Shown piece by piece: positions 41,490 through 64,000 of a DNA stretch of 64,000 nt (its first letter is position 1; the number at the start of each line of letters is the position of its first letter). This stretch comes from Leptodontidium sp. MPI-SDFR-AT-0119 (lineage: Eukaryota > Ascomycota > Leotiomycetes > Helotiales > Leptodontidiaceae): NCBI GenBank assembly GCA_020726505.1, contig JAHLEZ010000039.1:372001-436000 (forward strand). The letters are read 5' to 3'. Both the position numbers and the translations under genes were made by a program. The notes below the pieces were generated by a model, which saw only the letters and a program-made list of their open reading frames with translations, was not told where the DNA came from and did no database searches.

Positions 41490-41690
41490 ATAATGTAGTT
41501 GTTAGCTATCCTTGGGAGGAGAAGATAAGGGAGATACTTAAGAGAGATACTCCACTAAGGCGAAGTTAATAATTAAAGAAGGTGATAAGCAATTATAATG
41601 TGGTTATTAGCTATCCTTAGAAAAAGAAGATAGGGGAGATACTTAACTTAAGTGAAGTCGATAATTAAAGAAGGAAGTAACTATAGTCTA
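41490..41690 (+). repeat. Two direct copies of about 100 bp
   Basis: Copies start near 41490 and 41595 with ataatgtagttgttagctat or variant. They share gggagatacttaa and gaagttaataattaaagaag. Confidence 0.75.
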
Positions 41691-41860
41691 TACACGTAAA
41701 CAGGGTTAGGCTTAGAAACAGTTAGGTGTTTAAAAAGTTAAATTTAAAATTAAAATTTAAAAAGCGTTTAAGATATAAATTATTTCTAAGTTATAAAAAA
41801 ATATTTCATAAATATTAATACTATTTAAGTATTTATTAATAAAATAATTTTATGAAAAAC

Positions 41861-42710: not shown

Positions 42711-43970
42711 GTAATCTAAATATTATTTTTTTAAACTCTTATAATAGTAATTCCTAATATTTTACTAGAATAATATAAATATTATTATTTAAGTATTATT
42801 AATAATAACCTTAATATTAAGATAATAAATATTTTATTATTCGAACTATTATTATTTTCCTTTAATTAATAACCTTAATTACTTTATGATTTCTATTTAT
42901 CTTAAAATTAGACAAATTATTAACTTTTAATTAAGTTATTATTTTTATTATAAATTAATTTTTGTATTCTTAATATTCGTATTTATTATAGTTTCATATC
43001 TTATAGGAATTTTTTCTTAGTCTTAAGTTATATTAATTTATTATATATAGTTTAAATTATTTTATAATTAACTATATTTATCTTTTTAAAGATAACGTAA
43101 ATAACGTAAGTTATTTTAAGAGACTTATATTACTTAATTTGACGTTTACTTTTTAAAACTTTAATTAGAAATTTATTATATTAATATACGTATAAAATTA
43201 AGGTTATAAATAAGTCGAAAAATTAATAATTAATTATTATTAAAAAGATTAAAATTAAAGTAATGTCTCTTATATTTTTACACTTTATAATTAAGTAAAG
43301 AAAAAACCTCGAACTAAAGAGGTATAAATAATCGATTATTATTTTTTTATTCTTGTAAATTTATACACCTTAAATATATTCGTTTTTTATAATTACGTAA
43401 ATCGTCCTTATTATTATTATTTTCTTATACTTAATATTATAATAAAGTGAACCTGTTATTTCCTTTCTGTTAATTTAAATATTATATAAATTATTTTAAG
43501 TATTAATAATAGTAAGAAAGATATTTATAATATAAATAAGCTTGTTTAGTCTAATACGAGATAAATATAAATATTTCGCAGATTTAATTAATTTAATTTT
43601 CGAGGTATTTATATAATTAAGTAATAAGAGATAAAATTAAAGACTAACTAAGAAGTAGTCTTAAAGAACACTCTAAAAAGAATAATAATAAAAAAGGTAA
43701 GGAAGATATTATTATAAAGATTAAGGAAGGTAATATAACGCGAGCTTTAATAATTATAAATATATCTTTTCTCGTAAAGTAAGGCATTCTTTTAGATATA
43801 TTAATTATAAAAGAGAAAGAATAAAAGTACTTAAAGATAACATAAGGAGTTAGTAAATAAGATTGCGTTTACTAGTTAAATAAGTAGTAATATTTAGGCC
43901 TTACGTACGCTAGAGTTCTATTAATCTACAGTAGTTCCTTAGGCATTCCTTGTGTTTTCCCCGCGCCGCG
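42711..43970. other. Extremely AT-rich DNA, no gene
   Basis: Composition is the most AT-biased of the window, with no repeat structure beyond short A/T runs. CG content rises abruptly at about 43900, just before the first palindrome. Confidence 0.6.
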
Positions 43971-43999
43971 GTTATAAAAACAACGCGCCGGCCGTATTA

Positions 44000-44093
44000 T
44001 TTTAGTATAACAATATACTAAAACAATCGCGCACGGACCCCCGCGTCGCCCCCCTAGCGCCTACCTACCTTTCAGTATACTAGTATACTAAAA
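44000..44093. promoter_or_regulatory. Boundary palindromes P1 and P2 (pair, 70 bp apart)
   Basis: P1 (44000-44023) and P2 (44070-44093) are copies of the half-site TTTTAGTATAC plus its inverted complement. Between them is the GC-rich box GCGCACGGACCCCCGCG (44029-44045). They precede ghost gene A. A TATA-like ttataaaaacaacgcgcc lies left of P1 at 43972. Confidence 0.8.
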
Positions 44094-44109
44094 TAATTTC
44101 CCTTAAACT

Positions 44110-45330
44110 TACATTAACATCACTAAAATCCTCGACTCACATTCTGCTAACTAAAACTAAACCGCGTCAATACACTAATTCTACTCTTTACTAAGAATAA
44201 CAAAAACCTAAATATACCTGTAAGCCGAGCTTCGATCTAACTAGTAGTAAGAAAGACTAACTTATTAGCCTCAATCTAAACCCCGCTAATATACCTCGTC
44301 GTCGCAAAACAGCCAAGCAAGCGTCCAGCTAGCCCTTGTACGTTCCAGCCGCTGCCTTACTATAAACTATTTACTGATTCTTTTAGACTTTCTTCCCCCG
44401 TGTCTCGACTTATTTCTCCTCTCCTCCGCAAGGCCCTATCTCAAGGCGAGATCCTCGGCGACGAAACTATCCTCTACTATATTAATCTCATATACTCGAA
44501 CAATACATTAGATTAGACCTTTATATTCTTTCCGCTCTTCCCCGCTAAGCTTTAGATCTAAATATAAAAGGAGGCTAGCTAAGATGCCATCAACACTGTC
44601 TGAATTCGATGTGCCGACCCCTCCTCCGAAACTAACAAGGTCGTGTCCGAATATATTATACTCAAGAAGCCTATACTATTAACCCTCTGTGAGCGCAGCC
44701 GAGTCGTATACGTAGAGGTATATAAAAATACTAATTATATTTACTATAGTACTTATCTGCGGATAAATAAGGACACTTTAAGATTAATAGTAAGATCTTG
44801 TAGAGAATTCTTGTCCCTTATAAATAATATAAATACGAACTTAACGAAGGGACTAATTAAGTTAGAGTTACTATTCTGGGCATACTTCTCTTATAAAGTA
44901 AGTAAGATTAGGGCAAAGTAAAAGTTTAAGCGGAATCGTGATAGGTTCCTATAGAAGTTGTCACAGTTTGAGGGCCTAAAGTAATTATTGTTTATTATTA
45001 ATAAAGCGGAGCAGTCTATTTAAAGATAGAACAAGACCGAGGCAGTAGACCGATTGCAACTAATATAAAAGAAGGCCTTTAAGAAGTCTACGAGCCCTCT
45101 TAAGGTTAGAGGGATACTTGTGAAGTCGGAGGTAACTAAACAGTACTCGAGTATCTCGGGATTGCGGACATACTATAGTAGGCCATTCTAAGTAAAGAAG
45201 AAGGCAATTAAGAAAGTATATTAAATTTTTATTAAAAAGAAGTATATAATAGTATTACACAAGTTCCTAAGTTTTCTTAATAGTATAATTTTCCGTGATA
45301 ACTAATTATTAGTTATCGCCTTAATAACAA
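44110..45330 (+). pseudogene. Ghost gene A, weak Ulp1-like start
   Basis: A plus frame with former-Gln-type stops runs from about 44.4 kb; the 5' part is unclear. At about 44455-44560 it reads GEILGDETILYYINLIYSNN followed by FIFFPLFPAKL. This recalls the start of Ulp1/C48 peptidases (WLNDExxNFYxNL, then FFxxKL), but the later HW, Asp and Cys catalytic blocks were not found. The central part (44643-44921, 92 codons) is the longest stop-free run. Function is not assigned. Confidence 0.5.
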
Positions 45331-45421
45331 GATTCTAATCACTAATACAAAACCTTCCCCTATCCGTAGTCTTTATATATAATAAGTTTCTAGTTATATA
45401 CTATATAAACAGAGTCTATTA

Positions 45422-45504
45422 TTTTAATATACTAATATACTAAAATATTCCTCCCTTACCTCGATGTCAAGAGTTTATTATTTTAGCGTATTAGTATACT
45501 AAAA
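45422..45504. promoter_or_regulatory. Boundary palindromes P3 and P4 (pair)
   Basis: P3 (45422-45445) is near perfect. P4 (45481-45504) has GCG in one half-site. They lie between A and B, which have the same orientation. The spacer cattcctcccttacctcg-type text occurs after both copies, so the pair looks like a local duplication. Confidence 0.8.
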
Positions 45505-45563
45505 CATTCCTCCCCTTACCTCGTTATTATAAGAACGCCCGTGCCTAAGCTATTAAAATCCCG

Positions 45564-45582
45564 TTATATATAAACAACGCGC
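45564..45582 (+). promoter_or_regulatory. TATA-like element upstream of gene B
   Basis: ttatatataaacaacgcgc, nearly the same as ttataaaaacaacgcgc at 43972. The shared AACAACGCGC after a TATA run suggests a common core promoter. Confidence 0.4.
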
Positions 45583-45599
45583 TTCCTAATACATCGCCA

Positions 45600-47550
45600 T
45601 TTTGTCCACCCTCCATTAGCCAGTGTCTATACTCACCCACGATAGGATTCAAACTATTAGTCGAATCGCTCCGAGCAGCAGTAAAAGCCCCCTCCTCTCC
45701 CGACTTACGTTATTTATACTAATACTCTCTAGTTCGTGGATATAGCAGAGGACCTCTTTATAAGATAAAGCGCAGTCGATATATATAATATTACGTATCA
45801 AGGTCAATAATCTTCCTCGAGCTTCGACGTCGCCTAATAAGAACAGTATAACACCCCCCTATCTATTAGAATTCAGAGTCGACTTCTACTAGCTATACCT
45901 CTTCTTCCTCTCCCTCTTCGACATCGGTCTCCCTACCCTCGCTCCCTAAAGCCCCGGCTTCCTCAACCCCGGCGAACCTAAGTCCTCTTCTCACTAAGAC
46001 CCTAGCTGCAACCCCTACATCGAAACTAGCCCCTCACCTTTCAAAAACCCCTGCCTCTTTATTGACACTAAAATCTTCTCCTTCCCTCACTAAACCTCCG
46101 GCTTCCTTAACGACATTACAGTCTTCTCCTTCTCTTACTAAGCCTCCCGCGTCGAGTTCCTAGCAACTATCGATATAGACTCCGGCCAACCCCTTAACTA
46201 CTATATCTATAGTAAATACTATAGTAAAGAATATACTATTAGCGAAGATTACAAAGATTAGGCCACTCTTATACCTAAGCAATTTATAGTAAAGAACGTT
46301 AATACACTAGTTAAATAAGAAGGCAATTATATTCAAGGCAATTTCGGTGTATATATAAGTCCGTAATATTTATATTTGTGATCCTCGAACCAAACCCACG
46401 GACATAACTATTTATATACAAACTACTTACCTCCTACTTTCCCACAAGCCTCTCACCCTCTAAGAGTATACCCTATCACCGGTCTAATTCCTTATAATAT
46501 ATACATAAGCCGAGAAGCCATTTAAGCTAAGCTAACTAACCCCTTATTAAACCGAAGTAACTTATTAGTCGTCATCCGCCTTTTCCACTAGTATATCGTA
46601 CTTGAAAATAAGCTAGTAAGCATATAACTTAGCCCTAGTCGACTCGCTTAGTACTCTATTTATTTTACTTAGCGCTTCATTGACTACCTAGGAAAATTAA
46701 TAAGGAGTCGCGATATAATACACAGAGCCTACTTAAAGCTTTTCGTAGAACTCGTCGCAACACGTAGTACTAACCCTGACCTTAATCTCCCTACTCTTAT
46801 CCACGAGCTTGAGATTAAACACCTTCTAATCTATAGTCTCGAAATACCTAATCTTTGACTTATAAACCACGCGAGCTTTAATAATCCACTTAAGAATATA
46901 AGGCGACAACAGTTTAATAAGAGATATATTCGCGCGGAAGGGAGGGTTCGAAGAGGAGGATTCGCTTTAGAAAGGATTAAGATTAAGGCCCTTTAGCTTC
47001 GTAAGTCAGATCACAGTGAGTGTAACAGGTTGACTAATCTTCTCGACTTCGCCTAGGCCCTCGAGGACGTCGAAATCAAAAACTATTAAGATTTTACTAA
47101 AGTTAGCAAATAATCTCAAATCAAGTACGAGTGATTATAGACCTCAAGTTATTAATAAAGTCAGCTTAGTATCCCTTTAACTACACTATAGAACCTTCCT
47201 TTAACTTCCCGTCTTAAACAACTCTCTCGGATTGTACCCTTAACAACGGATTAGTATACACTCAACTTCTATATAAAGTAACTTACTAACTAATATTATA
47301 CACCTCACCGAGTTATCAATATCACTCAAGATAATAGTATATCTTGCTATTATAATAATTAATACGTCTAGAACCGGTTCGACCTTCAAGCACTAGCAAA
47401 TCAAGGACTAGCCTTTAGAGATCGCTGACGTGTTATATAAGGCATCGCTAAAGATATCACTAAGTTAAATTAATAGAAGCGCATTCCTTTTCTAAGCAAC
47501 TTACTTTAATACTCCCTAAGTAATCTAATCGCGCGCTACGTCTACTATTT
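45600..47550 (+). pseudogene. Ghost gene B, unrecognised
   Basis: The frame holds a Ser/Thr/Pro-rich region at about 45890-46180 with the repeated block SPSLTKPPAS. A more globular part follows at 46.4-47.1 kb, for example FIDYLGKLIRSRDIIHRAYL and FNKRYIRAEGRVRRGGFALE. Stops are mainly TAA/TAG. One frame change is needed between the two parts, either an intron or an indel. Lies between P4 and P5. Confidence 0.5.
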
Positions 47551-47691
47551 TATATGAGTACAGATAGTGTCTTTATTAATAAAAGAAGGACGACTTTACT
47601 TTATTTATTTTAGCTATTTAGTTAGTGGTACAAAGGTGGCGCATCTCGGGGTAAGTTAGCCCGTGCGCGCGCGTTAGCCGACAACTATTTG

Positions 47692-47715
47692 TTTTAGTAT
47701 ACTAATATACTAAAA
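47692..47715. promoter_or_regulatory. Boundary palindrome P5
   Basis: Perfect half-sites, one-base asymmetry at the centre. CCGTGCGCG (47661-47669), the reverse complement of the CGCGCACGG core of the GC box, lies 22 bp to the left. It separates B from C. Confidence 0.85.
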
Positions 47716-47814
47716 CATTTAACCTATAACACAACTAAACCCTATCGCCCACTTAACAAATACCACAACTATAATATCCTATAATCTTAAGACGTAAAGT
47801 AACAGCTCGAAACA

Positions 47815-49701
47815 GCCAATCTTACCCCGCAAGATCGCTACGAAACGTAAACGCGCGACTGAGACCGAAACCTCAAGCGATAAGAGCAAGAAAGCTCTGA
47901 AGAAGGGGCGGAAGAAGAGTAAAGCGAATATTATAATAAAAAATATAAAGTAAAGAAAAAGAAATAAGCTTTCTTAATAAAGAGTTTAGGCGGCGAAGGC
48001 CAAATAGTATACTTTTTTAACCCTCCTTCCTTATCCTATACTAACCGTCTTAAGGCATCATTGCCAACCGCGCTACAGAGCATCCTCGAAACTCACTCCG
48101 GCGCGTAGAGGGCGGTCTAGCGCGCGATATACGTTATTAATAGTAAAAAACTAAGCGACAAGGTATCCTTCAATTCCGGCACACTTAAAATAATCCCTAT
48201 AGAGGCTTACTATAAAGGCTAAGTTCCGACGTCCGACTAGTTATAAGATCTTGTATACAAGGACTTAGATCAAGAAACCCTTATTAATATGATCGTCAAT
48301 TATAGCGAAAATAATTAAACTAAAGACTAAGTCACTTAGAAGATCGTTACCAAAACATTATTTAGAGGGATCAGTCAACTGCCCAAGACCTTTAGTGACA
48401 TCTCGGGTGTCATCGATTTCCCTCTACCCCCGACAGACTTCGAACTAAAGCTCCCCTCTAAACTTAGCCGTACTATTATAAACGCTAAAGCCGCTTCCGA
48501 ATATATAGCCAACATTATCTTTACTAATTAATTAATTAAGTACCACATCGACACAAGTCACGCTAAGCTCACAGCTCTCACAAAATAATATAAAAAGATT
48601 TAGTTCGTCACACTATATACTGAAGCTAACGTCTCCCTCCTCCTCGAACCGGACTATAGCTTCTAATCCCTTACTACTAAGTTGTATAATCTTATAATAA
48701 TCCGCTAAACTTTAAGTCACGTCCTTTTCTTCCCTCTAAGGTTAATTCACGTAACCTTCACAATCACAGCCAGAATTTTATATAACAATTCTTTCCGCAT
48801 ACACTAGAATATTTAAGGGGCGATAATAAGAATAATTTACGCCTTAAATAAGAATAAAGAAAGAAATAACGAAAATGAACTAAACTATGTCGTTAAGTTA
48901 TAATTAGACACCTTAAAGGAAGACATAAAGTAGAAGCCTTTGCGTCGAGAGATTAGGGCGGCGATTAAATCGACTTGCCTTTAGAACCTTTGCAGAGACA
49001 AGAGGCTCTTGAAATATACTAACTAAGTAGAGGCTTTTATTACAAAGTATTTCCCAAAAGCCACACTTAAGGCTTTAAATATAGTAAAAGATAAAGCGAT
49101 AAACTGACCGTCGGTACCTAAGTTGCGGGACTAAGGCGCGGAGTAAGACGAGGATAAAAGTAATAAGTTAAAGGAAGAAGATAATATACTAGAACAATAA
49201 AATGCGGAGGACTAAATAGAAGGCGAGGGTAAAGAATTAGAGGATACGAGCGTGGATAATAAAGAGGAGTTAAAGGAAGATATTAATAAACAAGGAGATT
49301 ATATTCTAAAGTAAGAAGATAACAAGGGAAGTAAGTATACGACTAATAAGGCGAGTAAAGAAGAGAGTAACAAAGACGAGAATAACAAGGCAAGCAAGGA
49401 AGAGAGTAATAAGGAAGTACATAACTAAGCGAGTAAAGAAGAGGAAAGTGAGGAGGTACATAACTAAGCGAGTGAGGAAGAGGAAAGTAAGGAAGTACAT
49501 AGCTAGGCGAGCAAGGCAAAGGGAAGTAATAATAAAGAGGATAAAGAGAGCGAGGAGAGTAGAAGTGAAGATAAGGAGGATAAAGAGAGCAAGGAGAGTA
49601 GAAGTAAGAATAAAGACGATAAGATAAGCCAGGACTAAGATAATACCGTAATTCAAGACAACGACGAGTAGATAAAGGTTCAGGAGACCGAGTAGTGCTA
49701 A
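47815..49701 (+). pseudogene. Ghost gene C, basic N-terminus and acidic repeat tail
   Basis: It opens with a highly basic stretch (RKIATKRKRATETETSSDKS, then KKGRKKSKAN), shifts frame once near 47945, then continues uninterrupted by frame changes to about 49.7 kb. The middle is globular-looking (LQSILETHSGA, FSDISGVIDFPLPPTDFEL). The last 130 codons are acidic repeats of NKASKEESNKDE and ASKEEESEEVHN type. The charge split suggests a nucleic-acid or chromatin-associated protein; this is inference. Bracketed by P5 and P6. Confidence 0.6.
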
Positions 49702-50000
49702 ATGAGTAGTTAAGTAGTATAATATTATGTATAGAACTAATAATTAGATTGCCTCATGTCAAATTATCAGTCATTAACTAAGTCAGGAAGTGATGACAGA
49801 TTAGTAGTTATAACCTAAATTAGGAAGGCATAACAAATTATTAGTCATTAGCTAAGTCTAGGGGTAATAACACAAGAGTAGTCACTAACTAAGTCAAGAC
49901 GTGATAATAGATTAATAGTCACTAATTACTTTCGGGATAAATAGTTACAAGTAGTATTTCTATATAAATAAGATCCCTAATAAAAAATAATTACTAATTC

Positions 50001-50024
50001 TTTTAATATACTAATATACTAAAA
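50001..50024. promoter_or_regulatory. Boundary palindrome P6
   Basis: Half-site TTTTAATATAC with inverted CTAATATACTAAAA-type partner (one RIP-type change). It lies between the convergent 3' ends of C and D, so it cannot be only a promoter. Confidence 0.85.
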
Positions 50025-50089
50025 CCCCTCATATCTATACACTCCTAAACATTCGCTCTTTTAACATAAAGAGCTCGGCAGGGTACCGT

Positions 50090-53000
50090 GGGATACTCCC
50101 CGGCCTATATACACCCTTCCCCCACTAAAATAAGCCGTCCTATACCACCGACTACTAAATCCGCCTATTAGTGTCCTTTGCCGTCGAGATTAAGGTCCCA
50201 TTTCCATCCGGCAACGGAATTATCTAATAAAACAAGAAGAAGTCAACGAAGAAGTTATATTGCTATTCCTTCCGAATCTCCGAGTACGAGTTCAGAGTAG
50301 TATCTACCTTTTAATATATCACTCGGTACTACTTATTATTAAAATGTTTACGATTATAACCTAGACTAAATAACCATAAATAATCGAACATCATCCGCGG
50401 ATCCTTAATCTTTGTCTTATTAGAAATACATAGATATAAAGGAACCTAAAAGTATTATACTAGGTCGTTGTAACAGAAAGTGATATTGTCATCTTCGATC
50501 TTACTCCGTATCTCTAGTTATTCTAAATTCCCTTCCTTTATTAGTGCCTAGAAGACAACTTGTCGATACCTCCGGAAACACAAATAATTTAATAAATTCA
50601 AGACCTTCTTTAAATATAAGTGCCCCACGGCCTCTAAGAGTAACTTTAAGATATTATTAAGCTCTTAAGCAACTCGCCTTACTTCGCGTGTCTTTTAATC
50701 AAGCCCTAAGACATCTCTGGATACTATTAAAAAATTAGGCTAGATATCCTCCTGTATCTTAAGGCGCGCCTAATTAACGACCGGCAAGAACTAGGCGTAG
50801 CCCGTCTAAGTTAAGGTCGACTCGAATCCTAACCCACGGCGTAAAGTCCTATCTTACCCTTAGTATTAGTCATACTAAAGGGTTCTCACCCTATATAACG
50901 CCCCTTAGGTAAAGAAGTGTTACAGGCATTTTAAGAGGGCGTAAAGCAAGTAACTCCGACCTTTACTAATCCCGTCACTTAAGGCGATTATAGTAACTGC
51001 CTCAAACAACTTACAAAACTTCTTAATATTACCTATTACAAAGTCGTAATACCGCGGAGACACAATCGCCTATACGAAAGGCGGGGTTTGTGACTATTAA
51101 TAGAACGTAATATCTTCTTAGTCCTCGATCGCCTTCGTCTGAATCTTATTAAAACAGACCAAGAGAACGGTACTAAGTAGTCGAGCCTCTAGCCAGAGCG
51201 ACTTTGCCCGGCCACGAGCCGCCTTATAACCAGTTATAAATCGTGTCTTACTATTCGTGTAACTATTCTCGATCGTCGCTCGCTCCTTCTTTCCCGTAAG
51301 TTTCCCATCTAAGGCAATAGAGAGCCAAGTGACTTAATCAAGACAAAGCTCTAAAAGGCTAAGGTTACTAAAAGGATAAACTGTTCTTACGTCGTAGATT
51401 TCCTTCTTAATTATATAATACTATAAGTACCTTAATCTAACTTTATAAATCTAAGAACCTTTAGCTAGTTTGTGTGTTATATTACACGCCTCGGCCAAGA
51501 ACTTAACGTTATAATACTCCGTTACACTTAAGGGCCCTTCGGGGTATAAGTTCTTCAGAAGTTTCTCTAAGCAATATCGCTTCCATAAGTAGACCTAAGC
51601 TTCCCTATAATTGTTCCCACTTATAATAAAAGCGCTAAGGCAGATTTCGATTGCGACATCAATAAAGAGATCCTCGTGTAGTAAGAACTCCTAATTAAAT
51701 ATAGTATCTAGCTTATTATAATAGTTTATAATAACTGCTAAGAAAGATTCCTGACCTTAGAACTATAACTTGTGTCCTTTGCCCGTGATATATAAAAAAG
51801 GATTAATAAAGTCCTTAAAACCGTCCTTAGATATAATGTTTAAGATTATTGTCCAAATTATTTCAAGATATTTCGCTTAAATTAAGTAAGTTCGGTGCTA
51901 CTTCGTTTTCGAATCCTCTTTTCTAGACTGTGTCTCGCTTGCCTTTACTCCAGCGTTTAACTAAGTAATAAGCCAAGTAAGTAATATATACTGAGTGACT
52001 ACATCATAAGCCTAAGCGAAAATACTCTTTATTATAATATAATCAGAGAAGTAAGCCAATTATTTATTCGTTAACCCCTTAGTCTAAGTACTATCTAGAT
52101 TATAGAGGTTAAAGAAAAACACATAAACGGCAAAATTATAAATACCTATAATACCACTGATATATAAGTGTGGAATATGTCAAAGTTACACCGTTACCTC
52201 CCTTAATTCACAGGTGAATTTATCGTATAAATATATAAACGTTCACTTAATCTTGACATCACTTATAATCCCCCGCACGTACTAATATAATAGACAATAA
52301 AAGAACTCACATCGAATAACTACGAGAGATATTAATAAAGCCCCTATACTGTCGATATCGCTATTTATTAAAATAAATATTTACGCGACTTCTTCTAACT
52401 CAAGACAAATGTTCTTCGCTAGTAACGACGCGTCTGTCATTCCTGTTATAAGCTCTTCGACATACGAAGCCGGTGAGACAAAGAGCTTCTTACTTACCCC
52501 TTAATTACTACGAAAAAGCGTATTCTTAAGCCCAGTAGTTATTTTTAGAAACTAATAAACTGCCTTATACGTAGCGTCTAGAGTGTAGTAATTACTATTA
52601 GCTCTACGCTCATAACGTATAGTATTCAGCTTATGTTACCTTTTACTACACCTTAGAATCCCTCCCTGAATTATTCTTAAGAGGGTCAATACTAAATAAT
52701 AAACATTGTCAAGTTAGTCTAGTAACTCGTATTAATTAATGAGGTCCGGGAGTTCTAGGTCTTAATCTTCTCGTAGTAATAGGCCTCCTTGCTCGTCGAA
52801 GAGATCTATAGGCTCGCCTATAGAATCGAGGGCTTCGTCATCGTTAGGAATATCTAGAATATTATCGTCGGAATCCGCGGGCGGTACTATAGGCAATAAT
52901 ATCTTTATATCTTCATCTTAAGTAGTGCCTTAACTTGATCTTGCCTTAGTCTCTAGCAACTACGAGAGCTTTTTCCTAAACCCTCCCATCTTCTAGTCTA

Positions 53001-54340
53001 ACTCCTTACAATAGACTAATCGACCTTTTCTTTTTAAAGGGCTTACGGAACTGCCCTCTTTTATATTAAATAATTTCAACGACGAGGGTTTTATTCCTTA
53101 AGAAATAAAGTATTAAGTATTTAAGGATAAATCGACTAAGTCGCTAGAAGAGTAATGTCCTGACTCTAATAAAAGAGGTCGTATAATTACAAAGCGTGAA
53201 TTTAGGTTAGACAAGATTCCTAGACTACTCCTCTTGTCTAAGAAAAGGGTTTATATTAGAGTGGGGCTAAAGGTTGTCACCGGCGATACTCGAGGATTGT
53301 TATTTACGTTTAGAGGGGATAAAAATAAGTGAGGAGATTTAGAACGTATAATTAATGTAATTATAGGATTATTGTTTAAGTTTGGAAGTAATAGAGATAA
53401 GAAAGTAGGCTTAGATTATATAATTGACACTATTCTAAGACTACTTTTTATATCTAGTAAGAGAGAATAAATAGTTATAAAGCTAGAATCCCTATTAGAT
53501 AAGATCCCTATACTACGGCTTACATCTAGCAAGAGAGAATAAATAGAAGTAAAGCCAGAATCTAGATTAGATGAGATCCCTAGACTGTGGCTTATATTTA
53601 GTAAGAGAAAATAAATAATAATAAAGCCAGAATCCGCATTAGATAAGATCCCTAAACTGCGGCTTATATCTAATAGGAGAGAATAAATAGTAGCAAAACC
53701 AGAATCCGCATTAGATAAGATCCCTAGACTACGGCTTATATTTAGTAAGAGAGAATAAATAGTAACAAAACTAGAATCCGCATTAGATGAGATCTCTAGA
53801 TTATTTCCCGTAGTCGATAAAAGTGACTGTATTAAAGTAAACCCAAAGCTTGATAACTTCGAAGTATCTGAATCCTCTTTATACTTACGACTCTGCCTTG
53901 GCGTCGAGAAATTTGTAGTAAGGAGTCTAGGAGTCGGTCGAGGAGTACTAAATACATCGGGTTTTAATAAAAGAGAAGTAACGCAAGAAGCGGCTGATAG
54001 AGTTATAGAGGAGCTATATAGAGAGTTCTATTACGAATTAATAAAAGCGGCTTTAGTTTAAATAATTCATATAGTAATAAAACGATCTATTAGCCCTACG
54101 ATATTACTTCTCGATTGGCTCCTAGCTGTAGACTAGCCTAGTGAAGCACGCGGCCTTCCACGCCCTCTAGTTAATCGACTTCGAGAGGTAGTCAGCGATA
54201 CTCGTGGCCTTCCACGCACCCTCCCTAGTTTCGGCGAAGCTTTTGCCATCGAATAAGTAATTAGTACTATATAGTGAAGGTTCGGATAGGCAGAGTATAT
54301 ATTGAGGCATAAAGAAATAAAGAGCTAAGAGAGAAATAAC
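50090..54340 (-). pseudogene. Ghost gene D, large protein with 24-residue repeats
   Basis: One minus-strand frame can be followed for about 4 kb, roughly 1,330 codons, without frameshift until its last few hundred bases. Nearly all interruptions are TAA/TAG, as expected from CAA/CAG. The order is a Ser/Thr/Pro-rich N-terminus, five 24-residue repeats (SGFATIYSLLLDISRSLG), a second Ser/Pro-rich linker, an acidic block near 52.85 kb (PNDDEALDSIGEPIDLFDEQ) and a long globular part. Readable stretches include YPEGPLSVTEYYNVKFLAEA near 51.5 kb and RFITGYKAARGRAKSLWLEA near 51.2 kb. No family is recognised. It is the largest gene of the array, bracketed by P6 and P7. Confidence 0.7.
53449..53810 (-). 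repeat. 72-bp coding tandem repeat, five units
   Basis: gagagaataaata recurs at 53461, 53533, 53605, 53677 and 53749. The exact period of 72 bp equals 24 codons in the frame of gene D, supporting that frame. Confidence 0.9.
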
Positions 54341-54359
54341 AAAGGTAGTTTAATTAATA

Positions 54360-54383
54360 TTTAAGTATACTAGTATACTAAAA
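54360..54383. promoter_or_regulatory. Boundary palindrome P7
   Basis: GTATACTAGTATAC core with one mismatch in the outer arm. Lies between the 3' end of E and the 5' end of D. Confidence 0.85.
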
Positions 54384-54419
54384 CCCTAAGGATTAGTTTT
54401 ATTCACTAAGCGACCGCTG

Positions 54420-57400
54420 AAAACGGTCCTTACTATAAAAACCCCTATACTTATAAGAAATTAGTTTTATATATTTATAATTATAATATATAACTAAGCG
54501 TAATTCATTTATATACAGCCTTAGGCAATAATTATCTTCCCTCAAAGTAATAATTAATAACAAGTAATAGTAAACGATACAAGTCAAGTACGAATATCAT
54601 TAAGGAGAAGAGGCTTCGCTCGTAACTTTCTCTGTCTCTCGTAAGAGGTCGAGGGTTTAAAGTAAAGAGAGGTTTAGTTTATAAGCCCCTCGTGGTACTT
54701 AAAGAGAAGAGAGGGTAATACTTACGTCTCTTATAACGTAAGGAATTAAGTATTCTATGGCCAAGCAAACACTAACTATTTCAAGGAAGGCGTTAAAGAG
54801 TACCTTAGTGATTTTCTCTGTTTTCTAAGTCCTGAGCTTATGAATTCTAAAAGCCGTTAGAACTACAACTAGTAGGGGCCAAGGAAGCTACTTACTAGCT
54901 GGCAGCACCCTTTAGAAGAAGTACTACGATACCCTTCCTAAACTATTATACTAATATATAAATCCTATAGTGCATTTATAATTAACTACTTAGTTGTTCC
55001 TTCGTTAACTTTAATTAAGTGGCTAAGTATTCTAAGATATAACTACGAATATCGACTCTTTATTTAGTTTCGTAACCTACTGCCCAGAGGAAGTCTCGTA
55101 ACTTTACCTTATTTAGTCTTATTACTTTCGTCTATAAATGTATATAACTTTTGTATAACTCAAATCCACGTATTATATTAGTAATTTCAACTGTTATCTC
55201 CTCTTTTGTGACTTTAGTCTCGACCTTAGTATATAATAAGAAGAAGGTTTATATCTCAGGCATCGAGCTCTACTTAGACGCCTTTTTTATTACAAGAACT
55301 GCCACTGACGCCTTAGCCTTATTAAATTCGATGATCTCATCTAGAAGCTTAATAATTCGCGTTTAATAGGCTACTCTGAAAGTGTTTTCAAAAAAGAACT
55401 CTTTAAGGAACGTAATTTGTACTAAGGTGACGTTATATAATATAATAGAATTATTTCTTTTTCCTTTAATTATTAATTACTATAACTTATACTAAAAAAC
55501 GTTTACTACTTCTAAGTCCAAGCTTTAGCTTCGTTATTATATAATGGCCGGTTAAGGACTTGACGTCGATCTTACACTGGCTCCTAACTTATTAAATACC
55601 TTTCTCCGTTTCGAAGGGCGCTATTCCGCGGAGTCTAATATAAAAGGTAGTTCTAGAGAAGGACTTACTTGAGGTTCGTTTAAAGATAGTATATTCGAAG
55701 AAGTAAGGTTCGACAAGGGGGGATTCGAGGACAGCAGATTCGACGAGGAGGGATTCGACGACGGCAGATTCAAAGACGGCAGATTTAACGAAGGGGGATT
55801 CGACGACAGTAGATTCAAGGACAGCAAATTCGAGGAGGGGGGATTCGTAAAAGGGATGTCTAAGGAGGGGAGGTTTAAAGGGGCAAGCGTTAGAGAAAGG
55901 TAGTTCGAAGAGGTGAGGGGTGAGGTGGCGAGAGTCGTAGAGGACATATTAAGAGAAAGTACAGTCGCAGAAGGCAAGAGGATTCGGTCCTAGTAAGGTA
56001 AAGGGAATGTTATAAATGTACTAAGGAGAGCCTAGACTAGAGTTAGTTAGTAGTATATTAGCGGTTAAAGCGTGGGGAGAGGCTCTCGAGCGGACGGTTC
56101 TAATTGTGGAGGCAAGGACGGCGTCGAGGATGTCTGTAGGGTTTCTACGAGCGATCGAAAGGCATCTTAAATACGAGAGATCTTCTCTAGCTAAGTATTC
56201 GATAGTTCGAGGATCAAGTAGTATATAATTTACTAGAGGAGCTGCGTTTATTAGTACCGCGTCTAAGGAAAGGGGGGAGGGGCGTATAGATTAGTATTCC
56301 TCTATAAGGGCGCTACCTTACAAGATAATATCAGCGGGACACATTTTATAATAGGTTACTAAAAACATTCTTAGGAATAAGAGGGAGAGGGCAAGTAAGA
56401 TATATTTTATTATAGATATTACGGGGTATATTTTATTGTGAGTATTATAGGGCGCTAAAAATATACTGGCGTATTACAAGGAAGAGTGTATTATTACGCA
56501 AAAAGTGTATTATTAAGAAGGAGCTTATTATTAAACCGGCGTTATCTTACTTATACGACTAATTTCGGCAATATCATAGCAGACATAGATTTATTACTAC
56601 TCCTCCTTACGAGTCTTATAATCCGCATTAGATAAGTCGACATATAATACCGCCATAATAAGATTATTATTACCGCGAGTATTTTAAGAGAAGAGCTATT
56701 GTCGTGCTCGCAATAACATAATCACAGTTATATTTAATATATAATACACAATATATTACTACGAGCCTTACTTCAAAATCATATCATTACTTCATCGAAT
56801 TATAATGTTCTACTATATATACAGCCAGGCCCCTCTCTACGAGGTCTTCTTCTTTACTTACTTCGTATCTATCGTCTTCACTAAACCCATAAGAATCGGA
56901 GCTCCAAGCGCCTTACTATTTAACTTCTACTTCTACTTCTTAAATACTGACTCCTTCTTATCTCCCGACAAGGAGTACTTCTTAGAAGGAGAAGTATAAG
57001 TTTGTGGCTTAGTTAGAGTATATACACTAGAAGGCTTAAATAAACTAATGGGCATTAGTTAGTCTAGTAGGGATTCTACTGTCAGATTATTAGTATACGA
57101 GCCCTATTAATAGAAGTACGACTTATTATTAGAGGCCAAGGGAGGGCTCAAGTCTAAAGTGGCGCCCTTAAACGGAAAGTTTAGCTTTTAGGTAAGGGTC
57201 AATAAGTAAATAAAGACAACTGAGGTCCTCTTTAATATACTTTCTTTAGAGGCAGGGAAGGACTAAGACGAGGGTTAAGAGGAGGGTTAAGGGATCGGCT
57301 TAGGCTTAGTCTTAGGAGCTTATATTTCGGGCGTTAACAACTTAAGGCCTACCGACAGTATAATCTTAAGTTTAACTTTTAGACGAGCAGTTAGGGCCGT

Positions 57401-57790
57401 AATAAACAATGTACTAGGTTTCAGTTCCGCAGTGACGTTCACTAGGGCGACTGGCTTAGTTCTCGTGGATTTAGTCGAAGAAGGTTAAGGTCCTTCGGGA
57501 TAGACAACTACCCTTATTAGAGTATATCTAGTAAGCAGAGAAAGAAGCTTACCTTTATAGACGAGATAATAAAGCTTTACTCCGTCCTTAGTCGCAGCGA
57601 GCAACTCCCGACCTACGTTAAGAAGCTAGAATTATAAGTGTAAGCCTAATATAAAAGCTAGGAAGGGAGAATTACCTGTACTCACAGTTGATTTATAATT
57701 AAGATTCCGCTTAGTCCTAAGTCTATTGTAAATGCCGTTACTATTACTATTAATAAAGTTAGTAATATTTAGAGGAAAGGAGGGGGTACT
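54420..57790 (-). pseudogene. Ghost gene E, Ser/Leu/Asn/Pro-repeat protein
   Basis: A minus-strand frame starts left of P8 near 57.79 kb (TPSFPLNITNFINSNSNG, LAFILGLHL) and continues through KDGVKLYYLVYKGKLLSLLT and a Pro/Gln-rich linker near 57.27 kb. After a more damaged stretch it includes the stop-free 55621-55977, which is a string of five-residue units (SSNPPSLNLPS). The 3' end toward P7 is poorly defined. Divergent from F across P8/P9. Function not assigned. Confidence 0.5.
55700..55860 (-). repeat. 15-bp coding repeat
   Basis: About ten imperfect units of the form gattcgaggacagca / gattcgacgagggag. On the minus strand these give S-N-L/P-L/P-S pentapeptides; on the plus strand they give F-D-D-G-R units. 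The minus frame is preferred because it joins gene E. Confidence 0.7.
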
Positions 57791-57831
57791 TACAATTGTT
57801 TATATTTTAGTACGCGGTAAACCGTGCGCGA

Positions 57832-57944
57832 TTTAAGTATACTAATATACTAAAACCCAGCTGCCGGGCCACCCCGCGCGACGTCGCCACAAGCTCGGTG
57901 CTATAATAACCCCACTAATGTTTTAGTATACTAATATACTAAAA
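57832..57944. promoter_or_regulatory. Boundary palindromes P8 and P9 (pair at a divergent boundary)
   Basis: P8 (57832-57855) and P9 (57921-57944) flank a GC-rich 65-bp spacer. CCGTGCGCG (57822-57830) lies left of P8, and its inverse core CGCGCAC lies right of P9 at about 57950. E starts to the left and F to the right, so this is the best candidate for a bidirectional promoter. Confidence 0.85.
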
Positions 57945-58029
57945 CATTCGCGCACCTTTGATCCTAATCCTCGACCACACCCTTAACTTTCTCTAGTTTA
58001 TATTCCTATAACTATACTACTATAGAGGA

Positions 58030-60965
58030 ACTCGAAACCCTAACTTCGGAGATTCTTAGCGCAATCCGTTAGTTCAACTACTATTCCGACTAGTAAGCCG
58101 ACCCTTAATCTACTCTTATGACATCTCTTAATTATAAATAGCCTCCTTTAAGAATTCTTAGACAGAATCGTCTTAAGTAGTCTAAATATCGTCGTCTTTA
58201 TTTAGGCATCGAACGACGACATTATCTCCTCCGCCACTGACGTTATTATACGTAATACTAACCTCAGTCGCTTATTTATAACTCGTGTTCGTGTTAGATT
58301 AAAAAACGTCTCTGTCCTCGGCTTCCCTAATATCCCTCTTAAACGCTCTTACTATATTAATAGTACTTAGTAATAGACTTCCCATAACTAGGCCAATCGG
58401 TTTGTTCGAGGACCTATCTAAAAGAGCAACTCCTGTGCCTTAGACTCTGTTATCGTCCTACTACTATTTCTTGATACTAGTAAAACTCAAGTAAATTAAG
58501 TTGCCGCTCGCCTTGTACGCGATAATACTCCTCGTGGCAAGGTTTCCCACGTAGCTATAGTGATTATTAAGAAGCCTTAAGTATCCCTCACTTAAGATGA
58601 CATAATAAATCTTCGAGACGTATTAAAGACCGCGCTAGCCCTCAAGGATCTGAGCTACTATAAAATCGGCAAATTCTACAGTGCCACTACAGTATTCGAG
58701 GACCTTGCCCACTATATCCCCCAATATAATACAACCTAGCTTGTCGCAAACAGATACTATAGTAATAGGCAGTGGATATAGAGGCTTAAGGGGAACTAAC
58801 CTTTCAAGTTTATTTAGAACGGTCTCTTTCTCGTCGTCGACCTCGTCAACTAAGTTACTAATGCCCTTACATTCTAATAACAACTATAAATCTTCTTGGC
58901 TATACGTATAGAAACTAAGGTCTATACGAATCAGACCATCCCTCGCTACGAGCTTTATAGAGACAAGAGACCTAATACAGATCGACTGCCTATAGTACTA
59001 GACTGGCCTCCTATAACACTCGCTATTCAGAACTTCCAAGCCCCGGGCGCCTAGAAACCTAGCAGCTTCGAGCCGGTTATCTTGGACTTTCCCCAAGTAG
59101 GCCTAAATAGAAGTGTTATTTAAGTCTAGACCCGATACGTATACTTTACTACGATCTTTAATCTAAACAGTAACTATTTCGTTACGGTAGTTAATATTAC
59201 TATAAGAACTGGCGGTACTAACTTTGTCTTATATAATAATATCTCTAATCGCGGACTTATTTAATTAGTTCAGGAGAGTTTTCAGGATTATACTAAGAAG
59301 CTAAAGTATTCTATGGACTTAATATATATTAGGATCAAGTTGTGATTAGTTTTAGGGTTTATCTTTAGTAGGAAAATTAAGTAAGAAAGTGGAGCGTATT
59401 TAGGCTCACGGGGCGTTTAGTCTATTAAAATACTATATAAGATGTTATTATAATAGTACACAAGTTTGCGAAGACATGAATCGAATCTTCGGGCAGATAC
59501 GTGACTATTTATTATCATTAAGACCTAATTTTCTAACGTGAGCTACGATAACAATTTCTCTGTTATTGTAATTAACGAGGGATGTTACAAGATCAACCTT
59601 ACTAAGATTAATATTTTACTTAGTACTAATCCTCTTAGGAAGAGCTTTAAACGTCGTAATCTTCTTTAAGGAAGTGATTCGAGAACATTTAGTAAACTAG
59701 TACTTTAAACTTTAGCTTTCTTTACTCGAGGCTCTTCTTCTTTAATGTGTTTCTCGAGATGTGTGGTCTTAAGTTTAGCTTACTCTTACTTTGTTAATGT
59801 AGTACTAGCGCGATTCCGGGCATCTTAGAGCTGTCCTTAGTACTCACTTTCTTAATCTTCCTTAAAAACAACACTCGCCTATAAAGTTTAAAGAAGCTCT
59901 TCCTTAGTCTAGGCTTCCTAACTTTGCTTTTCTATCTCCTCTTTTGCTTTGTCGTACTAAGCCTACAGCTTCTCGTAGACTTTCGTCTACTATTTCAAGA
60001 GAGCCTCGAGTTCCTTTACGTTCTTTTGAATTATAGACTTTCGTTTCTTCTCCTTTACTAAACTAGATTTCTTAAGATCTTTAACGGTCGCTAATTATAC
60101 TATCTCGTTAGAATATTATATCACTTATACCTTAAGTGCTTAAGCTTTACTTTTCCTCTTAAGCTCCTTCTCGCACTTTCCAACTCCTATTAGTTTCTTA
60201 CTTGCGACCAAGTACTTCTATCTTATTACACACCCCTAAATCAAGGCAGACTATATTACAATAGGCAGTAAAGTAAAAGATTAAAGACTCGAAGTGTATT
60301 TTATGCCCTCGTCGCTACATTTGTCCTTGTACCTATCGACTAAAGTATAACCTTACCACGCCTCTCTAATTCTAAAACCCGGTATACTTACGCTAACCAA
60401 TTAATATCTAGTGCCGAGCTATAATCCGAACCGAATTCGACTTCACTCTCAGTAGATGGGCGTGGGGTACGTGGAGTTCTAAGTATACTTCTATTATAGT
60501 CCGCCGAGATTAGAAAGTTAACAGAGATCTAATATAACTAGGGCAATAATATATATAACACGCGATTTATACGAACCTCTAATAGTACTAGAATATAAGA
60601 GAAGTAGACTATACTCATATTAAGAAGTAAGAAGTCAGTTAGAACTAGTGAATATACCCTCAGCCAAGATTCGGAACAGTTCTAGTTTTGTACTCTTAAA
60701 GCCCCTAAAGACGATCTCATAGACGATAGTTTATAACTTAGTCTTATTAACTGTGACGTCTAGCATTATTAAAGAGGGACTCACATCTACAACGAGTACT
60801 AGAATAAACTTAAGTGCCTATTATTAAACAGGGCTTGCGGCTAAGCCGGGCGATGACTAGCCCCAATAAGGACCCTTCGAGTTGGACATTGTCAAGTTCG
60901 TGGCGGAATAGAATCTAAGTAGTGCAATAAATGCGAAAGTGGGAGTATTTACTTTACAGTAAGAA
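58030..60965 (+). pseudogene. Ghost gene F, unrecognised large protein
   Basis: A plus frame can be followed from about 58.15 kb to the edge of P10, roughly 900 codons, with stops mainly TAA/TAG. Readable stretches include SSATDVIIRNTNLSRLFITR near 58.24 kb, LKDLSYYKIGKFYSATTVFE near 58.65 kb, RLPIVLDWPPITLAIQNFQA near 59.0 kb and a hydrophobic Ser/Leu/Phe-rich part at 59.7-60.2 kb. No catalytic signature was recognised. Convergent with G across P10. Confidence 0.55.
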
Positions 60966-60968
60966 ATG

Positions 60969-60992
60969 TTTTAATATACTAGTATACTAAAA
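60969..60992. promoter_or_regulatory. Boundary palindrome P10 with GC box
   Basis: Half-sites TTTTAATATAC and its partner GTATACTAAAA. The 17-base box GCGCACGGACCCCCGCG at 60998-61014 is identical to that at 44029-44045 and at nearly the same distance. The site lies between convergent 3' ends of F and G. Confidence 0.88.
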
Positions 60993-61009
60993 CAATAGCG
61001 CACGGACCC

Positions 61010-62079
61010 CCGCGCCGCGTTGCCCCCCGGCTTGACTCGCCTAGTAACTAAGCCGTATCCGCGTGATAGTTTTCTCGTCATTAGCTATAATATAGTTTAA
61101 ATAACAGATCTCTTGTCATCAGACATTTTCTTAACCTAAGGACTAACTCTTGTCCTGCCTTACACCTATTAATATAGCCTTACACTTCCTCGTCCTCGAC
61201 CACCTCTCGATTAAGACGAGCTCTTCCTTATTATAGTTTCCCCCGCTATCTAGGAACATATAGTAACAATAGTTTCAACATTAATATAATATATTGTCTC
61301 AATAAAGTATATATTACAGTAGCTAATTAAAGAAGGTACTGTCACAAATCTAAATTTAATTTAATTATAACCGACTTCCTGTCATTATTTTATACTATAT
61401 AAACAAGGATTTATAACCCCTAATTCTATTATCTTTTATAAGACCTCTAATAAACGTAAACCTAGACCTCTCTAACCACCGTTTCCTCCTCAATATCGCT
61501 GATCTCACTAGTTATAGTAAAAAACGAGATTAATAGTGTAAGGGACTTAAGCGGGCTAGAATTCCGTAAGGGCGTGACTAAAAAGTAAGTATATCTCTTA
61601 GGGAGTTAGGGCGAGGGAATATATATAATAACTGCTAAACTCTTGTTCTTAATAGCAGACGGTTTTGGGTTCGGAGGAGCCCTACGGGGCGTATAAGGGT
61701 GATAGGTGTCTCATTAGCCGTTGGGCTTACGGTAACTAAGGCAGTCGGGGAGCTCAAAGTAGAAGTAACATTTTCTACTATATTAAAAACAACTGGGCTG
61801 TGGTTAGAAGCTATAGGGTAAGAGGCAGGGTATAGACTTACTCTCTGAGACGATCTAATACAAGTCTATAATATACAAGTTCCTGCCACGGCTAACCACC
61901 TCCTTTACGATTACATAGAACTTAGGCGTAGTTAGCGACGCGGGCTCACACGGCGTGGAAGGGAAACGAACCTAGGCGAGAAGCTATTTAATAGAACGAG
62001 GCTCTTCCTCGAAATCAATTGGAGATAATGGGCTAAGTGTAGGTGTGCCCTAGAAGGTCGGTTCTCGGTTTTCAGGCAT
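61010..62079 (-). pseudogene. Ghost gene G, unrecognised
   Basis: Starts at an intact ATG (62079) reading MPENREPTF, then a stop for a former Gln or Trp, then GTPTLSPLSPIDFEEEPRSI. A single minus frame continues to about 61.01 kb, about 355 codons, with stops nearly all TAA/TAG. A globular segment (KFYVIVKEVVSRGRNLYIID) precedes a Pro-rich linker, and the end is basic (GRARLNREVVEDEEV and CLMTRDLLFKLYY). The 5' end lies 43 bp from P11. Function not assigned. Confidence 0.6.
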
Positions 62080-62121
62080 AATTACTAAGGAACTAAGATT
62101 AAGTATAGTATTAATAAATTG

Positions 62122-62225
62122 TTTTAGTATACTAGTATACTAAAAGGTAAGTAGGCGCAGGGGCGGGCGCAGGTATAGGCGCGGAGGTCCGTGCGTAAAT
62201 ATTTTAGCGTGTCGTTACACTAAAA
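62122..62225. promoter_or_regulatory. Boundary palindromes P11 and P12 (pair at a divergent boundary)
   Basis: P11 (62122-62145) is perfect with a CTAG centre; P12 (62202-62225) is degenerate (tagcgtgtcgttacacta). The GC-rich spacer holds the box in inverted form (62180-62195, one difference). TATA-like actatatataaaaacaa follows at about 62269. G starts to the left and H to the right. Confidence 0.82.
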
Positions 62226-62389
62226 CATTTAGTATCACCTAATAACAAGCCGTGTCAATAATAGCAACTACTATATATAAAAACAAATAATATTCCTCCC
62301 CCCGCGACGCATCTTCTTATAACCACTTCGCTTACTACTTCGTCTTATATCCCTCCTTTTTATACCACATTTACTCTCAACAAAACTTC

Positions 62390-63680
62390 TTTATATACTA
62401 CTATCTCGCATAAAGAGATCCCAATTATAGATACGCCCACATAGCCCCCACGAACCCCAGTCACGCCGCGGACGTAATAAACTTTAACTCTAGTAAGTCG
62501 AGGCGCGTGCAGAGATTGATTACTTACTGACTCTTTTAGGTCTTTATAACGTTAAGGGATATAATCTTGAACTCTAATAATAACGACACCCTAGAAAACA
62601 AAATACGATATAGTATAAAAGTAATGACAGGGCTAGTTACAAGAATGGGAGTCACTAATGATCTAATCCCTTAACTTAACTTCAGCACAAACCTTTCTAG
62701 TACTAGTGTTCTAGGCCCTAAGACTCTACTCCTAACCGCAGAGACTAGTGTAGATCTATTAACGTCAGTCCCTCCTCTGTTCTCCCTCTAACTATCTTCT
62801 ATTTTCGACGGGATCTACAAGAAATTCAATCTACTAAATAAGGAGCCTAGCTTCAGTCTACTACCCCTAATTATACTTAAGCTAACAGGCGACGGAAAGA
62901 CTAGATCGACTCCTTTAAAGAAACTATTAACGGGCTCTATATCCTTAAGAACCTCTACTTCTACCTCTACTAAGCCGAAGACTACTAAACCCCCACTGAC
63001 ACCTAAGAAGCTTCCTTTACAGTTTCTACTCACTAAAGTCACACAGTCAAAGTAAATGTAGGCCTTAAGAGTCGACTTCGTTAACGCTTTATAAGAGGCT
63101 CGATTCCAATTTACCTCTAAAGATAGGCAGATTAATAAGGTTAGTTTCACGGCCGATGAGGTTACTAAAATCACCACCGTCTTTTTCACTACCGTATTTA
63201 ACCTCAACGGTCGAAATCGCGCACTTACTATCGTTACAGCTTACCGCACATCTAAAGAAGGCGAAATCCCCGAATCCACTTAGGCTAATGCTCGCCGATT
63301 AGCTTTAGACGATATACTCCCACGTTTACTTAAGTAGTTCTACTCGGTATATACTTCTTTATACGCTAGAGATAATATACCTACGGCTATTATATCTCTA
63401 GTGTCACTTGCTAACAAGTATCTCTTCTGACAGTATCTCAATAGACTACAACAGGAGACCCCGGAGATAGTAGTATTCCTAAAAAGCCGGGGATTTTCCA
63501 AGTCGATAAGCCGTGGCTAGGCGACTATTATTATATAGTTCATTACTAAACAGCTCGGCGGAGGCGCCCGCACTACGCTGCAGAATCAGACCCGTGAAGT
63601 ACAGCTCGTGTTCTTACTCTATTTAACCTTCAGTATTAGTGTTCTTATACTTGTCCCTAGCTCAATTCTATAAATGTAAG
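62390..63680 (+). pseudogene. Ghost gene H, unrecognised
   Basis: A plus frame runs about 430 codons to P13. Readable stretches are RDPNYRYAHIAPTNPSHAAD near 62.42 kb, IKVMTGLVTRMGVTNDLIP near 62.62 kb, a Ser/Thr/Lys/Pro linker near 62.95 kb, DEVTKITTVFFTTVFNLNGR near 63.16 kb, and ARRLALDDILPRLLKQFYSV near 63.3 kb (with one stop read as Gln). The reverse-strand open frame at 62815-63207 is a shadow of this gene. Function not assigned. Confidence 0.55.
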
Positions 63681-63682
63681 TG

Positions 63683-63706
63683 TTTCAGTATACTAATATA
63701 CTTAAA
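63683..63706. promoter_or_regulatory. Boundary palindrome P13
   Basis: Half-sites TTTCAGTATAC and GTATA/TTAAA variant around CTAATATAC, with two arm mismatches. Lies between the convergent 3' ends of H and I. Confidence 0.75.
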
Positions 63707-63744
63707 CTTAATAATATATACTAATATAATACAGTTTAAAAGTG

Positions 63745-64000
63745 CTTAATTCCTAGAAGTTAATCGAGGTCTTTGCTATTACTACTAGAGTAAGACTTAT
63801 AGCCGCCGTCACTCCTATCTATAAGTAGGCCTAAACCGTGATCGTCGACCCGATTCTATAAGGCGGCCTAGTCCCCTATTTAACGTTAAAGTGGCATATA
63901 TCGCCTACACCTTATAAGACGCTATTACTTTCTTTCCAGATCGAAGAAGTAGATACAGAGATAAAGGGTTCAGAGTTAAGTAGTAGTAACAATAAAGGCG
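63745..64000 (-). pseudogene. Ghost gene I, 3' end only
   Basis: A minus frame enters from the right edge and reads SEPFISVSTSSIWKESNSVL, then GVGDICHFNVK and PPYRIGSTITV, before ending near 63745. Too short to identify. It continues the pattern of one gene per palindrome interval. Confidence 0.45.

What the first reader, a model, noticed from the sequence alone, without database searches (positions are those of the whole stretch)
44000..63706. Thirteen copies of a 24-bp palindrome spread over 20 kb, only at gene boundaries
Copies at 44000, 44070, 45422, 45481, 47692, 50001, 54360, 57832, 57921, 60969, 62122, 62202 and 63683 share the half-site TTTTAGTATAC and its inverse around a CTAR centre. 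I did not see it in the other 44 kb. Differences are mostly C/T or G/A, so the ancestral copies were more alike. A dispersed, gene-boundary palindrome of this kind in a fungal RIP tract is not something I can match to a described element.
Basis: seen in the sequence. Interest (0 to 1): 0.88.

Follow-up and report, generated by a model that had tools for sequence, protein, structure and literature searches.

The report
Shared gene-border palindrome of fungal element
A 24-base mirror-symmetric DNA motif recurs at the same 13 places, probably mostly gene starts, in copies of a 24.5-kb repeated element of a fungus, and it likely serves as one shared control site for the element's genes.

Summary
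Twelve of the 13 sites match TTTTAGTATACTAGTATACTAAAA within 3 mismatches; shuffles gave none and the other 44 kb has none. The 13th (62202) is a looser relative. The sites lie in a RIP-mutated repeat of about 24.5 kb (left end 41687; right end past the window, beside a telomere) of what is most likely Leptodontidium. Four full copies carry them at the same positions. All 50 listed of 93 genome matches fall in copies.

Two corrections. RIP made the sites more alike and more palindromic, not less. "Only at gene boundaries" has moderate support.

Two new facts. Unrelated arrays at the two ends share TGACA-N7-TGTCA (34 hits at that spacing, 0-1 at others). Gene D belongs to an unnamed family of about 1400 residues in filamentous ascomycetes.

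I read the palindrome as a promoter-proximal site for a dimeric regulator of the element's genes (inferred, about 0.5). No recombinase, replication or virus domain was found by Pfam; RIP limits that test. None of eight paper-search listings shows a description.

The parts
41687..64000 (+). RIP-mutated repeat element of about 24.4 kb or more (left end here; the right end lies 2.1 kb past the window, at or near C33:438105)
   Evidence: five fetched copies 87-92% identical; 12 places with the 43990-44600 stretch at 84% or more
41687..41710 (+). left terminus TCTATACACGTAAACAGGGTTAGG, same start in five copies with unrelated flanks
41864..42582 (+). left terminal array, 97-bp units, with TGACA-N7-TGTCA sites
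44000..44023 (.). palindrome site 1 (centre ACAA)
44070..44093 (.). palindrome site 2, 46 bp after site 1
44290..45290 (+). gene A remnant (frame +1, 12 shared stops against 19-29 in the other frames); sub-threshold match to 2EXR
45422..45445 (.). palindrome site 3 (first of a 59-bp tandem duplication)
45481..45504 (.). palindrome site 4
45690..47300 (+). gene B remnant, several frames, orientation likely +
47692..47715 (.). palindrome site 5
47800..49753 (+). gene C remnant with an acidic repeat tail (49300-49750), orientation likely +, weak
50001..50024 (.). palindrome site 6, where the frame of gene D ends (does not fit a start-only rule)
50027..54249 (-). gene D remnant, about 1400 codons; member of a fungal family without a recognised domain
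54360..54383 (.). palindrome site 7, 110 bp before the first ATG of D in the C15a copy
55540..57799 (-). gene E remnant(s), orientation likely -
57832..57855 (.). palindrome site 8
57921..57944 (.). palindrome site 9
58152..59261 (+). gene F remnant (frame +1, 10 shared stops against 15-35); resembles a ubiquitin-specific protease Cys box by eye only
59300..60760 (-). gene F2 remnant, orientation likely -, weak
60969..60992 (.). palindrome site 10
61465..61904 (-). gene G remnant, weak
62122..62145 (.). palindrome site 11 (exact)
62202..62225 (.). palindrome site 12 (variant, centre TCGT)
62540..63640 (+). gene H remnant (frame +0, 9 shared stops against 19-50)
63683..63706 (.). palindrome site 13

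Best explanation
The palindrome is a repeated site of one 24.5-kb repeat element, at the same 13 positions in the four full copies compared, and it likely works as a shared promoter-proximal binding site for a dimeric regulator that would switch the element's genes together. Shown: the sites, their fixed positions, their restriction to element copies among the listed matches, and the dyad in less-mutated copies (TTTNRGCATAC-TA-GTATGCYNAAA, with variants). Inferred: that most sites sit at gene starts (two in each gap read as divergent, one in most tandem gaps), that a dimeric protein binds them, and that this protein is encoded by the element. A second dyad, TGACA-N7-TGTCA, fills both terminal arrays and is likely the site at which the mobility or replication protein would act; gene D is a candidate for that protein. 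RIP has since mutated all five copies that I compared and made the palindromes look more perfect.
For: 12 of 13 sites within 3 mismatches, none in 100 shuffles. 93 genome matches, 0 in the reversed control, all 50 listed ones in element copies (same). All 13 sites align in C33, C2, C15b and C18, and 10 of 13 in C15a, which its contig start cuts off. Gene D (minus strand) is fixed by homology (profile E 8e-62 in copy C15a, hits in all five copies): no site lies inside its 4.2 kb, one lies 110 bp before its first ATG (my count). The gap between E (-) and F (+) holds two sites. A diverged fragment, C30:156930-157737 (76-77% identical), keeps the 44000 site with 1 mismatch to a degenerate pattern. 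Position 4/21 varies without compensation, which fits a protein site better than a strict hairpin.
Against: Site 50001 lies between C (+) and D (-), not at a start. Orientations of B, C, E, F2 and G are weak because RIP left many stops. Open-run avoidance vanished once the motif's own stops were masked, and flank tests at 100 and 150 bp are not significant. Compensated variants at 44000 and 62202 also fit a hairpin. No DNA-binding domain was found by Pfam. The little-mutated D paralog has no palindrome in the 370 bp before it. No expression data.
Confidence: 0.5

Rival explanations
1. The palindrome acts as RNA: a hairpin in the transcripts of the element (5' leader or 3' end), as at the 3' ends of mimivirus messages.
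For: Arms stay complementary where sequence changes (44000 GG/CC, 62202 GTG/CAC) while the four central bases vary. Of seven least-mutated sites that I folded (of 13), two give a 14-bp stem with a 4-base loop (44000 -16.5, 57921 -12.3 kcal/mol). Site 50001 lies where the frame of D ends.
Against: The other five of the seven folded have short or interrupted stems (44070, 62202, 63683, 45481: -4.8 to -6.6) or none (54360). Position 4/21 changes without compensation. Gaps read as divergent (44000/44070, 57832/57921, 62122/62202) hold two sites each, where a 3'-end rule predicts none.
Confidence: 0.2
2. The palindromes are recombination sites (integron-like cassette borders or recombinase targets) between gene modules.
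For: Dyad sites of about 24 bp between genes; a 59-bp tandem duplication at 45422/45481; paired sites start 59-89 bp apart.
Against: The copies compared share the same order and spacing of sites. The one large internal deletion among five copies (216 bp in C18, near 53502) is not bounded by palindromes. No recombinase domain by Pfam.
Confidence: 0.12
3. The palindromes are sites for replication, chromatin or insulation of a mobile DNA (cruciform, origin or boundary), without a role in transcription.
For: A second dyad array at both ends shows that this element uses repeated dyads; this copy lies beside a telomere.
Against: Spread over the gene gaps, not clustered, which is unusual for an origin (recalled).
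Confidence: 0.13
4. The motif is an artefact: RIP-driven AT-rich words or a small independent insertion sequence.
For: RIP raised the symmetry: C/A at 7/18 in 8 of 13 sites; T/A there in most of these in this copy.
Against: Least-mutated states still show 10-12 of 12 pairs, wobble counted. No match in shuffles and 0 in the reversed genome control. Listed matches lie only in element copies.
Confidence: 0.03

Closest known systems
Starship giant transposons of Pezizomycotina
   Same: Large repeated DNA with several genes in the same fungal subphylum, precise left end (Starship traits from the start of abstracts PMC12134995 and PMC12289983 and from recall)
   Different: No tyrosine-recombinase (captain, DUF3435) domain found in the frames scanned; smaller than most Starships (recalled); terminal dyad arrays
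Mimivirus 'hairpin rule' palindromes (recalled)
   Same: A palindrome near most gene borders of one genome
   Different: Here two sites in gaps read as divergent; no viral gene found; no relative of family D among 44 pattern stretches in the viral contigs
Telomere-associated elements such as Magnaporthe MoTeRs (start of abstract PMC7367193)
   Same: Chromosome-end location; one copy abuts TTAGGG repeats
   Different: MoTeRs are retrotransposons; no reverse transcriptase domain here
Ac/Ds- or Spm-type subterminal transposase-binding repeats (recalled)
   Same: Repeated short dyads in both ends
   Different: No transposase domain by Pfam, and no inverted copy of the left 12 bp at the right end within 2 mismatches

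Membership tests
Starship | DUF3435 tyrosine-recombinase captain near the left end | tested here: not met
   six-frame Pfam scan with X at stops of 20 kb of copy C15a and 4.2 kb of C15b: 0 families at E 0.05. Limit: RIP and introns lower sensitivity, though family D was recovered from the same frames by its own profile at E 8e-62
Helitron | 5' TC end, insertion after A, no duplication | tested here: not met
   TC present, but the base before it in five copies is T, T, A, G, A; right end and duplication not settled
Helitron | Rep/helicase protein | tested here: not met
Maverick/Polinton | terminal inverted repeats, integrase, protein-primed polymerase, capsid | tested here: not met
   no inverted copy of the left 12 bp within 2 mismatches at the right end of C2, C15b or C18; no such Pfam family, same limit
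MoTeR or other telomeric retroelements | reverse transcriptase | tested here: not met
   same limit
Mimivirus-type 3'-end palindromes | palindrome at 3' ends, not at 5' ends | tested here: inconclusive
   D has one at each end; gaps read as divergent hold two; no transcript data
Integron-like cassette arrays | shuffled or excised modules bounded by the sites | tested here: not met
   same order in the five copies compared

The most novel reading that the evidence does not exclude
An undescribed superfamily of subtelomeric fungal multi-gene elements that carries its own two-tier dyad code: TGACA-N7-TGTCA arrays at both ends for movement or replication by an unknown ~1400-residue protein family, and one 24-bp palindrome per promoter through which an element-encoded dimer runs all genes as a regulon.
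Probability: 0.27. Interest if true: 0.8.

Novelty: new variant of a known kind. Interest (0 to 1): 0.55.

Why it matters
Eukaryotic mobile elements rarely show a common control site in front of all their genes; that is typical of viruses and of bacterial regulons (recalled). If it holds, the site gives a handle on how a large fungal element times its genes, and the two dyads plus family D define an element kind that genome annotation now misses: the family-D query has no Pfam match, yet its relatives turn up in Hyaloscypha, Botrytis, Pseudogymnoascus, Pyrenophora and Fusarium as hypothetical proteins. The outward orientation seen near contig ends also makes it a candidate player in chromosome-end evolution.
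Full report
What is there. The window is G000:C33:372001-436000 of a 77-Mb genome in 69 contigs. One contig (C15, 1,079,257 bases) has exactly the length of the contig given for a Leptodontidium sp. MPI-SDFR-AT-0119 protein, so the host is most likely that fungus. The 13 sites were checked one by one: 12 match the 24-mer with at most 3 mismatches, the exact one being 62122; 100 shuffles gave none. Site 62202 is a variant.

The element. BLAST of the window and contig end against four other regions of the genome shows one long repeat: C2, C15b and C33 share about 24.5 kb, C18 shares it with a 216-bp deletion, C15a is cut by the contig start. All five start at the same base, TCTATACACGTAAACAGGG, after unrelated flanks. 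The right end is less certain: C18 diverges about 24.4 kb from the left end, C2 and C15b go on together for 2 kb more, and C33 runs into (TTAGGG)n. The copies differ by 8-13%, 94.5-98.1% of it transitions; across 21.7 kb there are 29 transversion columns against 4732 transition columns. So the copies were nearly identical and were then mutated by RIP. The stretch 43990-44600 is found at 12 places at 84% or more and in one diverged fragment, C30, at 76-77%.

Genes. Stops are everywhere, so I counted codons that are stops in every copy held at that place, frame by frame. D on the minus strand stands out (24 against 64-94), then A (+, 12 against 19-29), H (+, 9 against 19-50) and F (+, 10 against 15-35). 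B, C, E, F2 and G are weak calls. D is confirmed by homology: a diverged, much less mutated paralog at C15:239871-244160 (four in-frame stops) finds 131 proteins at E 1 or below, of which 120 are listed. A profile of 84 of them recovers D in all five copies (best E 8e-62, worst 1.3e-17). Pfam finds nothing in the paralog; 119 of the 120 listed have no precomputed Pfam domain and one (P0054) has two. There is no credible PDB match and no significant fold match. F looks by eye like a ubiquitin-specific protease around its cysteine; neither Pfam nor a protein search confirms this. An own-genome match of 61 residues, 44% identical, without stops, exists at C68.

Where the sites are. No site lies within the 4.2 kb of D; one lies 110 bp before its first ATG in copy C15a and one where its frame ends. 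Taking orientations at face value, the gaps read as divergent (before A, E/F, G/H) hold two sites each (the gene left of A is not identified), the tandem gaps one (A/B two, as a 59-bp tandem duplication), the C/D convergent gap one and the F/F2 convergent gap none. This fits one site per gene start with one exception (50001). The statistical side is moderate: the naive test is inflated by the stops in the motif itself, the masked test is not significant, and flanks only are significant at half-widths of 200 and 300 bp (P 0.025 and 0.0015) but not at 100 and 150 (0.095 and 0.23).

What the sites looked like. In less-mutated copies the sites read TTTNRGCATACTAGTATGCYNAAA with variants. Position 7/18 is C/A in 8 sites, T/G in 3 and C/G in 2. 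RIP turns C/A and T/G into T/A, so this copy looks more perfect than its ancestor; mean pairwise difference between sites is 3.37 here against 4.32 in the least-mutated states. Those states rest on 3 to 9 copies per site and can still miss bases that RIP changed in every copy. Two variants keep complementarity by changes on both arms (44000, 62202), while position 4/21 does not. The C30 fragment keeps the 44000 site with 1 mismatch to a degenerate pattern. With 23% divergence this is suggestive only, about 7% by chance on the 17 fixed positions (my arithmetic).

A second dyad. Both terminal arrays, with unrelated 97-bp and about 35-bp units, are built round TGACA-N7-TGTCA: 34 matches at spacing 7 and 0-1 at spacings 2-6 and 8-13 in this copy. 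C2, C15b, C18 and C15a show 30, 41, 21 and 21 at spacing 7 and 0-2 at spacings 3-6 and 8-12; the share in the terminal parts is 28 of 30, 39 of 41, 18 of 21, 32 of 34 (C33) and, in C15a, whose right end is missing, 13 of 21. I infer a dimeric protein that acts on both ends.

Chromosome ends. The left terminus has 18 matches. For the 7 whose contig length or telomere position I know (C2, C18, C33, C5, two on C15, C68), the right end faces the nearer contig end in 7 of 7; the other 11 could not be judged, and at C5 and C68 only the left terminus is shown. Telomere repeats end C2 and C18 and lie at 2544770-2544886 of C5; C33 ends in them too.

Reading. I commit to the operator/promoter reading at 0.5, above an RNA hairpin (0.2), replication or chromatin sites (0.13), recombination sites (0.12) and artefact (0.03). 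Function is inferred throughout; no expression or binding data exist here. Papers: I saw search listings and the start of abstracts only; a search for the core words in full text listed two papers, on yeasts by their titles.

Noticed in passing
window 41864-42582 and C33:436979-437920 (just past the window): Two unrelated terminal tandem arrays share the dyad TGACA-N7-TGTCA (34 hits at spacing 7, 0-1 at other spacings).
   Followed up: yes
L034:371-4663 (C15:239871-244163): Diverged, little-mutated paralog of gene D; its family of about 1400 residues has 131 hits (120 listed) and no credible PDB relative. A good family to name and fold by domains.
   Followed up: partly
C33 end (L016) and 18 left-terminus places: Left termini sit with the right end outward in 7 of 7 judged cases (11 not judged); this copy abuts TTAGGG repeats.
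   Followed up: partly
C5:2186009, C8:7914, C8:1832108, C8:1843730, C29:511239, C34:3203532, C32:249819, C68:10051: Left terminus without a match to the 43990-44600 stretch: likely truncated or non-autonomous relatives.
   Followed up: no
window 44024-44069, 60993-61018, 62146-62201: GC-rich follow-on (CGCGCACGGACCCCCGCG) beside some palindromes, in either orientation; unexplained.
   Followed up: no
C30:156930-157737: Diverged fragment (76-77%) of the element's left gene region that keeps the first palindrome; it would show which bases are conserved.
   Followed up: partly
L036:3-899: Stretch that looks by eye like a retroelement RNase H fragment at C39, not related to the element.
   Followed up: no
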